From assembly GCF_025024155.1 (NCBI RefSeq), contig NW_026251711.1:620001-684000 (forward strand): 64,000 bases of DNA. Reading direction: 5' to 3'. Source of the DNA: Gamsiella multidivaricata (Eukaryota > Mortierellomycota > Mortierellomycetes > Mortierellales > Mortierellaceae). Made by a program: the position numbers and the translations under genes. The first letter of the stretch is position 1. Each line of letters opens with the position of its first letter. Below, piece by piece: positions 2,495 through 61,685 of the stretch. The notes beneath the pieces are model-generated. The model saw nothing but the letters and a program-made list of their open reading frames with translations. It was not told the origin of the DNA and made no database searches.

Positions 2495-3193
2495 ATGGAT
2501 GCTACTTCTTCGGCTCCTGTCGCTACAAATACTCCCATCGTCAATATCACAGACACTGCCACACCACGGATCGCTCTCCAAAACACGCGAGTTAGGAAAG
2601 TGATGTGTCGTGGTCTTACTCCTAAACACAAAAATATCGAAGCGAACACTCTCACCGTCCTCCAGGCTATGCAGACAAACCCACCATTTTTCCCATATGG
2701 ACAGAAGAGAGCTGCCTGGGAAGCATTCGCAAGCCTGGCTCGATCGAATCCAGACCTACTTCATGTTAATGGCACCCTTTGCGAAGGAAGATACAAGCAA
2801 GTCCGAGACGAGTACAAGGCTGCACAGGCTGCGGCTAGACGAGCTACTGGGACAGCAGAGCCAGCCCCTTCGGAGCAAGACATGATTCTGGAAAATCTCA
2901 TCAGACTTGAAGAGGACGTTGAGAAGAGAGAGGAGGAGGAGAAACAACGACAGGCTGCTCAGACAGCGGATGAAAACCAGCTACAAGCAACTGCTCTGGA
3001 CATACGAGATGCAGCAGTGCGTTTTGTTGCGCAAGATACAGACCCTGCTACAGAGAGTGTCCACACCAAGAACGTTATCGATGAACTGCCCACCCCCAAG
3101 CGTAGAAAAAGGAGATTTGATGGCGACAAAGCAGAGTTCGACAAAACTAATCAGCTTCTTCAGCAGGCCCTCTTGAAGTATCTAAACAAATGA
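2495..3193 (+). CDS. Myb/SANT-like DNA-binding protein of Harbinger element
   Basis: A 232-residue protein. Residues about 60-120 hold a trihelix/Myb-SANT-like pattern with conserved tryptophan and aromatic positions (PYGQKRAAWEAFA, then CEGRYKQVRDEY). A Glu/Arg-rich coiled coil (EEDVEKREEEEKQ) and a basic patch (PKRRKRRF) near the C-terminus follow, the latter a plausible nuclear signal. In PIF/Harbinger elements the second ORF encodes such a protein, which binds the element ends and helps bring the transposase to the nucleus. It converges on the transposase ORF with only 22 bp between the two stop codons. The frame is intact. Confidence 0.65.
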   Translation: MDATSSAPVATNTPIVNITDTATPRIALQNTRVRKVMCRGLTPKHKNIEANTLTVLQAMQTNPPFFPYGQKRAAWEAFASLARSNPDLLHVNGTLCEGRYKQVRDEYKAAQAAARRATGTAEPAPSEQDMILENLIRLEEDVEKREEEEKQRQAAQTADENQLQATALDIRDAAVRFVAQDTDPATESVHTKNVIDELPTPKRRKRRFDGDKAEFDKTNQLLQQALLKYLNK

Positions 3194-3215: not shown

Positions 3216-4471
3216 TTAAGCATGAAGGTACTCCTCGAGCGTTGGAGGCGTGACTCCAAATCGGCCAACTGATGAATTGATCTCTGTAATGCAAGAGTGG
3301 ATGTTTGAAAAAAGAACGGAGGCTATATAGTGCAGGTGAACTTGGGATAAAAGAGAGCGCTGGGACTTTTTGTAATCTGAAAATGCAAAATACTGCAAGA
3401 CATGGCCAAAGGTCCACTCAACTGAAACTCTGACCGCAGACATGCATTCATTGAATCGCTGTTGCTGTTGAGTGATGCCGAGGGTTGGATAAGGAACTTG
3501 CAAAACAGGGGAAATAGGATATCCAGGGTCACCATATAGGTACAACTGATTCCCGTTAGTGTCCTTGGCCCAACGATAAAGAGTTTGCTGCAATCCTGAT
3601 GTTCTGTATATGGCTGTATCGTGATGTCGTCCCTGATATGGTCCTGAAAGATGAATGACAATACCATCCGGAGATGTGACCGCCTGGTATTTCATTGCAT
3701 GCACACGGTGATGGCCGTTGTAATCTAATTCTTGTCCTTCAACCGGCCGCGCGATTGGTCTTACAGTCCCATCAATAAAACCCACAACACCAGGTAAAGG
3801 AGATCCTGCAGCATGAATCGCAGCTGAGAATTCTTCCAGCTTGGCAGGCGACAGTCTTACCTGGTCCCAGTGGAAAAGAACTCCAGCCCATCGATTGTAG
3901 ATCCACCTAAGCACAGTGGTCGTGATCCGACTAAGCATGCCCACTGATCGTCCAAACAATTGTATCAGCTCGATAAAGCGACACGGGTAGGCAAGGCGAC
4001 GAAGAACGAGACAGAGACCCTCAAGGGAAAGAATCCTGGATCCATTATCAAGAACAAGAACATCTGGCATCCGCAATGCAACTGCAATATCTCGAATCTC
4101 GTCAGCCCGGAAGCGAAATAATCCTCCGCACGTCGCGTCATCGTAGGCGTCGATGTTGAGCCTGGTAAAGGGTATATGAGGTTTCTCCTTGGCCTGTTTT
4201 CGAAGTATTCATACGCCATTCGTAGGAATTGATATCCTGCTAATATAATTGGAAAAATCGCATCTTCATCTTCATCTTCGTCGTTGATGTTATTGCGTGG
4301 ATTGACTACTTCCGCGTCCTCCACCTCAAGGCCCTCCTCTTCAGTATCACTGTCGATATCCTCGTTTGTATCGTAGATAGTGTCGTCCTGGATATCGTTG
4401 TCGATACTATCGTCATCTCCCGAAGGTAGATTCTCTTCTTGGAGAAAGATGTCAAAGAGATTGTTGTCCAT
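3216..4471 (-). pseudogene. Harbinger-type DDE transposase, frameshifted
   Basis: The C-terminal 286 residues (3216-4076) are a DDE_Tnp_4-type transposase. Candidate catalytic residues are D102 in GFIDGT, D183 in GDPGYP and E220 in VSVEWTFG, with an HHD at 151-153 between them. The same frame stays open upstream of the first Met with typical family sequence (an FRFRADEIRDIA stretch). The N-terminal acidic part (start 4471) lies in a frame offset by one base, and the change falls near 4165-4185. No GT-AG intron of usable size fits there, so a one-base indel is likely. The downstream frame is otherwise intact, suggesting recent inactivation or a sequencing error. Confidence 0.75.
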
Positions 4472-58133: not shown

Positions 58134-58151
58134 GCTGAGAAGGCTTGCGAC

Positions 58152-58201
58152 TTTTTTTTTTTTTTTTTTTTTTTTTTATTAACATAAATCCCCATGAGCA
58201 C
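58152..58201 (-). mobile_element. 50-bp retroelement 3'-end micro-insertion
   Basis: On the minus strand this is GTGCTCATGGGGATTTATGTTAA(T) followed by a run of about 26 A. The same 3' end closes the retroelement at 60949. The 18-bp sequence GCTGAGAAGGCTTGCGAC flanks it exactly at 58134-58151 and 58202-58219. It is therefore an extremely 5'-truncated insertion with only about 24 nt of element sequence. Confidence 0.85.
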
Positions 58202-58280
58202 GCTGAGAAGGCTTGCGACAAGGGCTTGGGAGTTGTGGAATGTGGCCTGTCTTTTGGCGACCGTGGATTTTTTTTTAACT

Positions 58281-58573
58281 TTTTTTTTTTTTTTTATTAA
58301 CATAAATCCCCATGAGCACGCGACGCATGGTCCGCAAAGTTACAGGATAGACCTCGGATGTGGGGCTATAAATCGTTCTTTTTTTTTTTTTATAACAACT
58401 TGTCTCTCGAGTCAATTGACTCTGCGAATCTATCAGACTAACTAGCAAAGATCTACTATCGCTGTCCCAGTTGACAGGTCACATTCCCCCACACCTCATC
58501 AGTGTGTTAAAAGCTGAAAACACCTTGTTACAAGGAGGGTATCTTCCCCATCCCCTCCATGGTTGTCAACCGC
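58281..58573 (-). mobile_element. 3' part of older retroelement copy (left of nested insertion)
   Basis: Reading minus: the tail of an ORF up to TAA (58528-58530), about 230 nt of 3' UTR, then ACCATGCGTCGCGTGCTCATGGGG, GATTTATGTTAATA and an A-run. The 3' end matches the tail at 60884-60925. With the fragment at 60950-61527 it forms one copy split by the insertion at 58574-60949. A second possibility is that the last 60 bp are a separate truncated copy, because a 24-bp duplicate of 61423-61446 lies at 58341-58364. Confidence 0.6.
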
Positions 58574-60733
58574 ACGCTCAGCCAGCGTAGCGTAAGGAAG
58601 CAGGAATACATTCGACGTGCTATGGTAAACATGACAGGCAATCGACTGCGTAATCAAGACGACTTGGACCGTGCTTTCGACAGAGAAGAGCACAGACTCG
58701 ATCAACAATGGATTAAACAGAAGCGGGCACAACTGAAAGTAGTACAGAGGCACCTTCGGCAACAAATGCAGCAGGCAGAACAGCAAACACGGGAACAACA
58801 GCGACAATTGGAAGAGGAGCGGCGGCGGGCAGAACAGCAAGAGAGTGACCGACAGCGGCAGCTGGAAGAGGAGCGGCAGCAGGAGAAGCAACAGCAGGAG
58901 GAGCAACGACGCCTGCGGGACATCGAGAGACGGGCTCGATACAGAGAAGAACGACGAAGACGACGCCATTTATATCGTAGATATATGAATGTGGATGCAG
59001 AGGCGTGTATAGACCACTTGCATGAGGATGCGCACAAGGCGGTGGACAATATGACGACACCTGTTCGCCAACCATTGCCGGCAGTATCAGATGAAATTGA
59101 GCGAGATTTACTGGGATTGGCGCTCCAGGTACCAACAATCCAGCAAATTCGGACAGCTAGGAGACGTTTGCAAACACATCGAAGGCTTCACTTCTGCTCG
59201 GATGGGTCAGTGATTCACAACGGCACAGAGCAGGTCAGTGCAGCATTCGGAGTTGTCGTTTCTGTGGATGGTGGTCCCTACACAACGGCGTTCAGTGGAC
59301 GGGTCGGGGGATACGCGTCGTCAACAATTGCAGAGATGTGTGGGCTCTTAGCAACAATTCTTATCAGCCCAAGGGAAGAGAACGTCGACATCTACATCGA
59401 CAATCTCACAGTCGTCAACAATTTCAAGGAGTTGGTGCAGCAGCGGGATTCAGCAACAGCAAGGCAGCGTTTGAGATCTGCAGATGCACAGTGGTGGGCG
59501 ATGGTGCATTATGCCTTCTTGCAACAAGGACAAGGTATATCTGTGCATTGGGTACGAGGACATGCTGGACACCGTGGCAACGAGGCTGCAGACACTGTTG
59601 CCAAGGCAGCACATGGGATCGATACAGGACTATGGAGGCTAGACGCAACGCAGCACCATGATTTGAAATGCCACGCACAGTTTGCAACACACAGTGCAGA
59701 CCTGGACTTGAGGAGGATACTGAAGTTGCAGTCCGCGGTACGGCACCATTATCAGTGGACATTGCAGCATCGAACGAGGACCTACATCAAGGATTGGCGG
59801 TCGGTAGCATGGGCGCCCACGCTACGGATCTTACACGATAACAACCCGCCAAAGCGCTTATACACCAGCCTGGAAGACTGTCGTTTACGTTCGCACAGGA
59901 TCAAGAAGCTGCATGGAGATTTGCCGACATTGCAGGCGATGAAGAAACGACATCCAGATACCTACCAAACGGACATATGTCGTAGGTGTGAGAGGGAACC
60001 AGAGACGAACGATCATCTTTGGCGTTGTTCAGCTACCTTGTGCGACCAGCGACAAGAGTGGAGGGACGCGGTGGAGGAAGTGGAGTTGAATGGATATCGT
60101 GCATGGAGACAGGCAGTGCGAAAATGGGAACAGGAGAGAGAGGAGGCCGAACGGAAGGACAAGCCCTTCACTGCGACTTGTCCCAACTTCTCGGCAACAG
60201 GAACGAAGGCTATCTGGGAGTCAATGCAGTGGATTCAGGGGACGGCGGAAAGGCGAGGGACATATCGGGTTGCGGAAGAAGAGGAGCCGGAGAGTGAGGC
60301 AGATTGGGAGGTCAAGGACTTATACCGAGGTTTGGTGCCAACGGGACTCATTGAGACCTGGAAGCAGCTATTTACCACCACCAAGTGGATTGCGACGATC
60401 ATGGTGACAAAGTTCGTGAGCAGGATCGAAGAATTTGGCAGGACCAAGATATGGAACAAACGATGCGAGGACACTGTCGCCTGGGAAAAGTCAGTTGGAA
60501 TCACCTTCATGAGCAAACGCGCCGGAGGACGCAACGGTGATCGGGGACACCAACGTAGTGTTGGTGATTTCTCTGATTTGAAAGGGAGACGGTTACTTGC
60601 AACGGAAATCCAGGAAGGTAGACGGACCGCGGATTATAGGGTGCTACAGCATTGCTTGGGGCGAGGGAAGTTGGACATAATGGAGGGGTTATTCGGTTTA
60701 AAAACAACTTTATTAACATTGGATCTGGATTAG
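58559..60733 (+). CDS. RNase H and zinc-knuckle protein of retroelement
   Basis: A 724-residue ORF. The first ATG (58559) lies inside the target duplication, so the first five codons come from host sequence; the first Met inside the element is residue 22. Residues about 50-140 form a Glu/Gln/Arg-rich coiled coil. An RNase H domain follows at about 208-352, with D215 (CSDGS), E259 (IAEMCG), D281 (YIDN) and D345 (NEAAD), plus H335 (RGHAGH), so all catalytic positions are filled. A CX2CX8HX3C zinc knuckle uses C474, C477, H486 and C490. About 230 residues of Trp/Arg-rich C-terminal domain follow, which is also conserved in the older copy on the other strand. No reverse-transcriptase motif (YxDD) or endonuclease is present. 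The frame is intact, suggesting recent activity. Confidence 0.8.
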   Translation: MVVNRTLSQRSVRKQEYIRRAMVNMTGNRLRNQDDLDRAFDREEHRLDQQWIKQKRAQLKVVQRHLRQQMQQAEQQTREQQRQLEEERRRAEQQESDRQRQLEEERQQEKQQQEEQRRLRDIERRARYREERRRRRHLYRRYMNVDAEACIDHLHEDAHKAVDNMTTPVRQPLPAVSDEIERDLLGLALQVPTIQQIRTARRRLQTHRRLHFCSDGSVIHNGTEQVSAAFGVVVSVDGGPYTTAFSGRVGGYASSTIAEMCGLLATILISPREENVDIYIDNLTVVNNFKELVQQRDSATARQRLRSADAQWWAMVHYAFLQQGQGISVHWVRGHAGHRGNEAADTVAKAAHGIDTGLWRLDATQHHDLKCHAQFATHSADLDLRRILKLQSAVRHHYQWTLQHRTRTYIKDWRSVAWAPTLRILHDNNPPKRLYTSLEDCRLRSHRIKKLHGDLPTLQAMKKRHPDTYQTDICRRCEREPETNDHLWRCSATLCDQRQEWRDAVEEVELNGYRAWRQAVRKWEQEREEAERKDKPFTATCPNFSATGTKAIWESMQWIQGTAERRGTYRVAEEEEPESEADWEVKDLYRGLVPTGLIETWKQLFTTTKWIATIMVTKFVSRIEEFGRTKIWNKRCEDTVAWEKSVGITFMSKRAGGRNGDRGHQRSVGDFSDLKGRRLLATEIQEGRRTADYRVLQHCLGRGKLDIMEGLFGLKTTLLTLDLD

Positions 60734-60921
60734 GAGACGTGTATCGCGCAACAGGTCACGCAGGAGTTAGGTTAGGCTAGCTATGCGACATGGGTTATGA
60801 ATTTGACGCCTCAAGCCAACATAGTTGGTAGGGGATGCGGCTCTGCCGTGCATGGAAGGCATCTATGGCTTCAAGGCCTTTGCGGACCATGCGTCTTGTG
60901 CTCATGGGGATTTATGTTAAT

Positions 60922-60949
<28 letters not shown>
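58574..60949 (+). mobile_element. Non-LTR-type retroelement with RNase H ORF, poly(A), 19-bp TSD
   Basis: A 2,376-bp insertion ending in TTATGTTAATA plus a run of about 28 A, flanked by the 19-bp direct repeat CTCCATGGTTGTCAACCGC (58555-58573 and 60950-60968). The poly(A) tail and the long target duplication show target-primed retrotransposition. It carries one long ORF with RNase H but no reverse transcriptase, so it is either 5'-truncated or a non-autonomous RNase H-type element mobilised by a partner. It sits in an older copy of the same family in opposite orientation. Confidence 0.85.
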
Positions 60950-60952
<3 letters not shown>

Positions 60953-61527
60953 CATGGTTGTCAACCGCTTCCTCCCTTGCAGGCAATCCAGCAGCGTCCG
61001 ATCCGCTGCGTCTAGGTCAAGCACGGGGCCAGGGCAGCTCCCGTTTACATGGTCAGCGAGTAATGCACCACACGGACATTGGTCATCGTCGCTAATGTAT
61101 CCATACCCATCACTCCAGTCCCCTCTCGGTCCCTTGTATGGAGTTCGTTTCATCTTGGCTGTGATCCCCCATTCTCGCTCTCGAGCAATGGTGGCCTTGC
61201 AGTGTGGTTTCCAGATCAGCTCCGTAGCTTTCTCCTCAATAAAGCCGACGAACTTGTGAATGACCTGGCGCGCAATCGACGATGGCGAGGTAAAAAGGCT
61301 GCCCCACTCCTTGATAAGGCTGACGGGTGTGATGCCACGGCATAAATCGCTGATACTCCAGGTCAGATCCGGAGAGCGGTCATAATACTCGTCGCCTTTG
61401 AGCATTGATCGGGTCCCGGCGATACAGGATAGACCTCGGATGTGGGTCTCATTGTTAGGACAAACCCATCGAATGGGTTTCGGTGCAGCAGCGGCGGCTC
61501 CAGCGCGGATCCTATCACGCTCTTGCT
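60950..61527 (-). pseudogene. C-terminal fragment of older RNase H retroelement ORF
   Basis: On minus, an open frame from about 61527 carries a zinc-knuckle-like CPNNETHIRGLSC, then DLCRGITPVSLIKEWGSLF and IWKPHC..TIAREREWGIT. These align by eye with DLYRGLVPTGLIETWKQLF and IWNKRC..TVAWEKSVGIT in the intact plus-strand ORF. The frame runs into the inserted element at 60950 and resumes at 58573, ending at 58528. The two copies are clearly diverged, so this one is older. Upstream it is cut by a stop near 61527, and RNase H is missing. Confidence 0.7.
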
Positions 61528-61685
61528 ACTTCTTGCTGTTCTTGTTGTATGCGGTCGTTGCAGCTCGTCCCCACTTATCGGGGGCTATAGATCGTGCATT
61601 TAAGGAAAGTTGCACTTATGGAATGTGCTCTTGCTCAAAAATTAAATATATATAAGCTTCATTACAGCAACGTTCAGCAAAGCCC

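What the first reader, a model, noticed from the sequence alone, without database searches (positions are those of the whole stretch)
58559..60968. RNase H-only retroelement whose start codon lies in its target-site duplication
A 2.4-kb insertion with poly(A) and a 19-bp target duplication carries one intact ORF: coiled coil, RNase H with all catalytic residues, zinc knuckle and a conserved C-terminal domain, but no reverse transcriptase. The ATG at 58559 comes from the duplicated target (CCATGG), so the host supplies the first codons. If other genomic copies share this 5' end, it is a non-autonomous RNase H element family; if not, it is a truncated LINE that landed in frame.
Basis: partly seen in the sequence, partly recalled or inferred. 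Interest (0 to 1): 0.75.

Follow-up and report, generated by a model that had tools for sequence, protein, structure and literature searches.

The report
Young truncated LINE, chance start codon
This is an ordinary copy of a jumping gene (a LINE) of a soil fungus that lost its front half when it inserted, and whose surviving rear part stays readable because it is young and happened to land behind an in-frame start codon; the real oddity is that many related copies hold only a few dozen bases of the element.

Summary
The anatomy is confirmed: a 2,349-bp body, A27 and a perfect 19-bp target-site duplication (58555-58573 / 60950-60968), with one 724-aa ORF (58559-60733) whose ATG lies in the duplication, holding RNase H but no RT. 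The headline reading, an RNase H-only family, fails its own test. Of 29 other fetched copies, 8 reach this 5' end, and 8 of 8 run on through it in frame; 21 start at scattered internal points. In C111 one uninterrupted 771-aa frame holds the RT motif FVDD and about 111 residues of this ORF's start. A 41% relative (C103) has ORF1 plus EN, RT and the RNase H region in a 1,980-aa frame. So this is a 5'-truncated LINE. Its target is another LINE's C-terminal coding region, uninterrupted at 40 of 40 scored places. It has one private, silent change against 18 sister copies: young. An in-frame ATG just upstream occurs in 9 of 21 other truncated copies: coincidence. Worth following: 43 of 95 tails adjoin under 48 nt of element; 28 of these have clear target duplications, 14 being inserts of about 25 nt.

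The parts
58555..58573 (+). left target-site duplication, 19 bp; contains the ATG at 58559
   Evidence: empty target at 40 of 40 scored places
58559..60733 (+). 724-aa ORF: C-terminal part of a LINE ORF2; first 5 codons come from the duplicated target
   Evidence: in-frame continuation upstream in sister copies
58574..60922 (+). body of the 5'-truncated LINE copy, 2,349 bp
59192..59611 (+). RNase H domain (ORF residues 212-351)
   Evidence: PF00075 E 2.7e-11
59978..60028 (+). C-x2-C-x8-H-x3-C zinc-binding-type motif (ORF residues 474-490)
   Evidence: motif read by eye; no Pfam zinc match
60901..60922 (+). family tail CTCATGGGGATTTATGTTAATA (95 exact copies in the genome)
60923..60949 (+). poly(A), 27 A
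60950..60968 (+). right target-site duplication, 19 bp
58177..58201 (-). second, independent insertion of the same family: 25 nt of the 3' end plus 25 A (58152-58176), with an 18-bp target duplication (58134-58151 / 58202-58219)
58295..58339 (-). third insertion: about 45 nt of the 3' end plus an A tract; no clear target duplication found

Best explanation
The feature is a young, 5'-truncated insertion of a non-LTR retrotransposon (LINE) family of a fungus, inferred to be Gamsiella multidivaricata. Inferred from established LINE biology: a full element's protein (ORF2: endonuclease, RT, linker, RNase H, zinc motif, C-terminal domain) nicked the target, primed cDNA synthesis at the 3' end of its RNA, and stopped after 2,349 nt, within the ORF2 linker region; joining the cDNA to the staggered cut made the 19-bp duplication. 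Shown: longer copies continue upstream in frame, and the target was another LINE's C-terminal coding region, in antisense. The ORF is open because the copy is too young to have decayed; an ATG at the right phase in the target gives it a start codon by coincidence. I found no evidence that it encodes a functional RNase H-only protein; expression could not be tested.
For: 8 of 8 other fetched copies covering the 5' end share the same 30 bases upstream and the reading frame. C111: one 771-aa open frame holds RT FVDD (from residue 177) and TLSQRSVRKQ, the start of the element's part of this ORF (from residue 635); RVT_1 E 1.3e-13 in that copy. C175: a 1,147-aa open frame that reaches the end of the RT region, aligned to residues 914-1196 of the C103 ORF2; no RT domain by Pfam in it. 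Related C103: EN (PF03372 E 1.4e-11) and RT (PF00078 E 2.8e-21) in the part fetched, within a 1,980-aa frame that also holds the region matching this ORF at 41%, plus a 610-aa ORF1 upstream. The 21 remaining fetched copies begin at scattered points of the body. Perfect TSD, poly(A), 40 of 40 scored empty sites. One private change of 2,349, at the third position of codon 683, against 18 copies; singletons in those copies fall evenly on codon positions, 30/37/32, as for dead copies.
Against: Only one copy of this family (C111) was found with the RT active-site region, it has frameshifts, and no full-length copy was found (40 of 48 candidates scored), so the autonomous source element was not seen. 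That leaves room for mobilisation in trans by a related LINE.
Confidence: 0.97

Rival explanations
1. A non-autonomous family that encodes only RNase H, zinc motif and C-terminal domain, with its own defined 5' end, moved in trans by a LINE.
For: Single intact ORF without RT; only 1 copy with the RT active-site region was found.
Against: 0 of 29 other fetched copies share the 5' end; 8 of 8 that reach it run through it in frame, and the other 21 have scattered internal starts. The start codon is not part of the element.
Confidence: 0.01
2. A domesticated host gene derived from LINE ORF2, in which the RNase H and C-terminal domain serve the cell.
For: Intact 724-aa ORF with the catalytic-type residues.
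Against: Perfect target duplication and poly(A), one private change against 18 copies, no codon-position bias in sister copies: too young for a domestication signal. Expression was not testable.
Confidence: 0.02

Closest known systems
LINEs with an EN-RT-RNase H ORF2 and a CCHC ORF1 (the general plan of the Tad1 and I groups; recalled, clade not tested)
   Same: In the C103 relative: ORF1 with a CCHC knuckle just under Pfam's cut-off, ORF2 with EN and RT ahead of the RNase H region; in this family: poly(A), variable 5' truncation, target duplications
   Different: Nothing that defines a new kind; the window copy lacks EN and RT because it is truncated
Human LINE-1 ORF2p (8uw3) and R2 RTs, by sequence
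   Same: Best solved-structure matches to the C103 RT region (E 3.4e-22 for L1, 6.7e-15 for R2)
   Different: Human L1 lacks an RNase H domain and R2 uses another endonuclease type (both recalled)
5'-truncated human L1 insertions
   Same: 5' truncation, target duplications and 5'-junction microhomology are usual (PMC2912911, passages seen)
   Different: That study kept insertions of 50 bp to 10,000 bp; many of the inserts of about 25 nt plus A tract seen here would lie near or below its lower limit

Membership tests
LINE (non-LTR retrotransposon) | Reverse transcriptase in the same ORF as this sequence in longer copies | tested here: met
   C111 771-aa frame, one copy; RVT_1 in it; C103 relative
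LINE (non-LTR retrotransposon) | Endonuclease in ORF2 | tested here: inconclusive
   Present in the 41% relative C103 (PF03372); no full-length copy of this family itself found
LINE (non-LTR retrotransposon) | Target-primed insertion marks: poly(A), target duplication, variable 5' truncation | tested here: met
   the script found duplications of 17-20 bp for 9 of the 22 copies (window included) whose 5' end lies inside the body; it could not find those of the 8 longer copies
Tad1, I or L1 clade | Placement of RT in a tree with reference clades | not tested
   No reference RT set was at hand; one search shows only general similarity to L1 and R2
Non-autonomous RNase H-only element family | A 5' end shared by independent copies | tested here: not met
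   0 of 29 other fetched copies start there
Domesticated gene | Conserved ORF under purifying selection, expressed | not testable with these tools
   No strains or transcripts; what could be seen (youth, no codon-position bias in sister copies) argues against

The most novel reading that the evidence does not exclude
The family produces two kinds of insertion: ordinary truncated LINEs, and a separate class of ultra-short 'tail' insertions in which the reverse transcriptase stops at preferred points within the last ~45 nt of the RNA, most often about 25 nt from the A tract (5'-GTG; 14 of the 28 short inserts with a clear target duplication), yet integration still completes. One longer copy (seen on C4 and C27) carries the same 25-nt tail fragment, without poly(A), at its 5' junction, as if the RT had jumped to a second RNA 3' end and stopped at the same base. 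That would mean that second-strand steps need almost no cDNA, and would make such LINEs a source of recurrent insertions of a few dozen bases that annotation misses.
Probability: 0.35. Interest if true: 0.5.

Novelty: new member of a known kind. Interest (0 to 1): 0.22.

Why it matters
Mainly as a caution: a young truncated LINE can leave a long, intact, start-codon-bearing ORF that gene predictors may call as a protein. A homologue 97% identical over 67% of this ORF is deposited as a hypothetical protein of Gamsiella (P0001). The by-product is more useful: the same family offers some dozens of naturally cloned, minimal target-primed insertions, which could show how little cDNA a LINE needs to complete integration and where its RT tends to stop.

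Tried and rejected
An own 5' end of the family: rejected. A full-length source copy of this family: searched with the C111 RT region as DNA and the C103 ORF2 as protein. In one search only C111 and, for 99 bp, C175 matched at family level; the other rows match a neighbouring repeat at the start of the query (about positions 62-252) or other families at 67-68%. The source was not found. A stable RNA hairpin that would explain the stop at GTG: folds of three 3' pieces are no better than shuffles (z -0.83, +0.82, -1.06). A lower size limit of 22 nt for the short inserts: set by my own 22-nt query. A 13-nt tail search gave 108 matches, the list cut off by the tool. Of 21 listed places not in the 95, I fetched 13; the other 8 lay at or beside bodies seen. 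Of the 13, read by eye, four (L125, L127, L132, L133) look like inserts of about 20-21 nt (L132 with extra bases before it), one (L126) of about 13-14 nt, one (L135) is a short insert with a variant tail, six (L123, L124, L128-L131) are longer copies with variant tails, and one (L134) is unclear. Literature: six answered full-text searches; none of the titles or shown abstract beginnings describes ~25-nt LINE insertions, and one search returned no paper; only passages of four papers were seen, so this does not show that nothing is in print. Structure prediction was not run, because the question was settled by sequence.

My script counted body length as 0 throughout (an off-by-one); its lengths are not used, and replace them. 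Searches translated the upstream regions of this family in a wrong frame; one search replaces them. For the private-change and singleton counts I used 18 of the 29 other fetched copies; the 11 left out are L014, L017, L019, L022, L025, L027, L029, L031, L033, L035 and L038, mostly the more diverged, rearranged or duplicated ones. L067 was fetched and not used.

Full report
What is there. The window holds, at 58574-60922, a 2,349-bp sequence followed by 27 A and bracketed by a perfect 19-bp direct repeat (58555-58573 and 60950-60968). The ORF 58559-60733 encodes 724 aa. Its ATG and codons 2-5 lie in the repeat. Pfam finds RNase H (PF00075, E 2.7e-11, residues 212-351) and no RT. D215, E259, D281, H335 and D345 stand where RNase HI has catalytic-type residues (roles recalled). 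The zinc motif is seen by eye only, and the coiled coil was not tested.

Which genome. The window lies in a 37.5-Mb, 180-contig assembly whose source is not named. The best database homologue is a hypothetical protein of Gamsiella multidivaricata (BC939DRAFT_502748) on a contig of 410,576 bases, the exact length of contig C103 here, so I infer that the genome is this fungus (Mortierellaceae).

It is an insertion. The two flanks joined with one copy of the repeat match 40 of 40 scored places (124 first-look candidates) at 93-99% identity; each match covers 190-216 of the 235 bases, has the same length in query and genome, and runs across the junction. The target is part of another LINE: on its minus strand a 200-aa open stretch runs across the insertion point, and the region is 30% identical, over 194 aligned positions, to the C-terminal part of the ORF under study (E 6.5e-16). 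So the ATG comes from the antisense strand of a different LINE.

It is a truncated LINE. I hold 30 body copies (L009-L038, the window's own being L009), the 30 best-scoring of the 70 protein matches. Of the 29 others, 8 cover the window copy's 5' end (L010-L014, L022, L024, L025), and 8 of 8 carry the same 30 bases just upstream and continue the reading frame (...FTPRVQE, then TLSQRS...); how far they continue differs from copy to copy. The other 21 start at scattered points inside the body; the nearest, L017, starts 10 bases inside and has its own duplication. One further protein match reaching residue 3 (C105:393857) was not fetched. In C111 one uninterrupted 771-aa frame holds the RT motif FVDD and, 458 residues later, the start of the element's part of this ORF; about 111 residues on, that copy shifts frame. 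Its RT matches RVT_1 at E 1.3e-13. It also shifts frame within the RT and is incomplete at its 5' side. A related element on C103 (41% identical over residues 10-713) has a 1,980-aa open frame with EN and RT ahead of the region matching this ORF, and an ORF1 of 610 aa with a zinc knuckle just under Pfam's cut-off (20.5 of 20.8 bits).

Why the ORF is open. Against 18 sister copies (of 29 at hand; the rest left out as mostly more diverged, rearranged or duplicated) the window copy has one private substitution in 2,349 bp, A for G at 60607, the third position of codon 683, where GAA and GAG both give E. Singleton differences in the sister copies fall evenly on codon positions (30, 37, 32): no sign of selection. 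Several other truncated copies also keep long open frames. An in-frame ATG upstream of the junction, before any stop, is present in 9 of 21 other truncated copies. Of the nine, two are the identical copies on C4 and C27, where the ATG lies in a tail fragment, and one (L029) straddles the junction. The ATG in the duplication is therefore an ordinary coincidence.

A more unusual by-product. The exact tail occurs 95 times. For 87 I had flanking sequence: 43 match the element for fewer than 48 nt upstream of the 22-nt tail, so that less than 70 nt of element precede the A tract, and 44 for longer. The remaining 8 belong to longer bodies listed or seen in L029. For 28 of the 43 the script found a target duplication of 13-21 bp with at most one mismatch (leading A's may belong to the A tract). 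In 14 of these 28 the boundary lies 1-4 nt before the tail, with GTG directly before it, i.e. inserts of about 25 nt. Two of the 14 lie 75 bases apart on C110, and one lies in this window (58177-58201). Cautions: two of the 43 (C4, C27) are a tail fragment at the 5' junction of a longer copy, and the two are copies of one event; C72 and C110:12920 share one duplication and are probably one event; one (C95) is a rearranged longer copy; the others without a clear duplication are less secure; the size floor reflects my query; and no statistical test of the 25-nt peak was made. In the C4/C27 copy the 25-nt tail fragment has no poly(A) and lies inside one target duplication, which resembles the template jumping described for R2 RT (PMC8857657, passages seen; its authors suggest that jumping may not be needed for proliferation). 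RNA folding of the 3' end does not explain the stop. In human cancers short L1 transductions are reported to be easily missed (PMC13009371, passages seen), but that concerns transduced flanks, not whole inserts this short.

Verdict. The finding is accurate as observation and ordinary as biology: a young 5'-truncated LINE. The ultra-short tail insertions of the same family deserve the second look instead.

Noticed in passing
window 58134-58219 and 58295-58339; genome-wide, loci L001, L002, L009, L022, L035, L038 and many of L070-L122: Ultra-short insertions of the same LINE family: 43 of 95 exact tails adjoin fewer than 48 nt of element, 28 of the 43 with 13-21-bp target duplications, 14 of these starting at GTG about 25 nt from the A tract.
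   Followed up: partly
L005/L006/L032 (C4) and L033 (C27), 5' junction: A copy truncated at body position 1001 has a 25-nt tail fragment without poly(A) at its 5' junction, within one target duplication, suggesting a template jump.
   Followed up: partly
C111, L025 and L069: The only copy of the family found with the RT active-site region; it has frameshifts, and no full-length copy was found although many family members are about 99% alike. The source element may be missing from the assembly.
   Followed up: partly
window 60969-61530 minus strand: C-terminal coding part of a different LINE, the target of this insertion, with 40 scored matches in the genome.
   Followed up: partly
L003, L085, L086: Some tails end in extra ATA units before the A tract, suggesting slippage at the start of reverse transcription.
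   Followed up: no
window 3216-4076 minus strand and 2495-3193 plus strand: Neighbouring ORFs that look by eye like a DDE transposase/nuclease (Harbinger-like, label recalled) and a DNA-binding partner; not tested.
   Followed up: no
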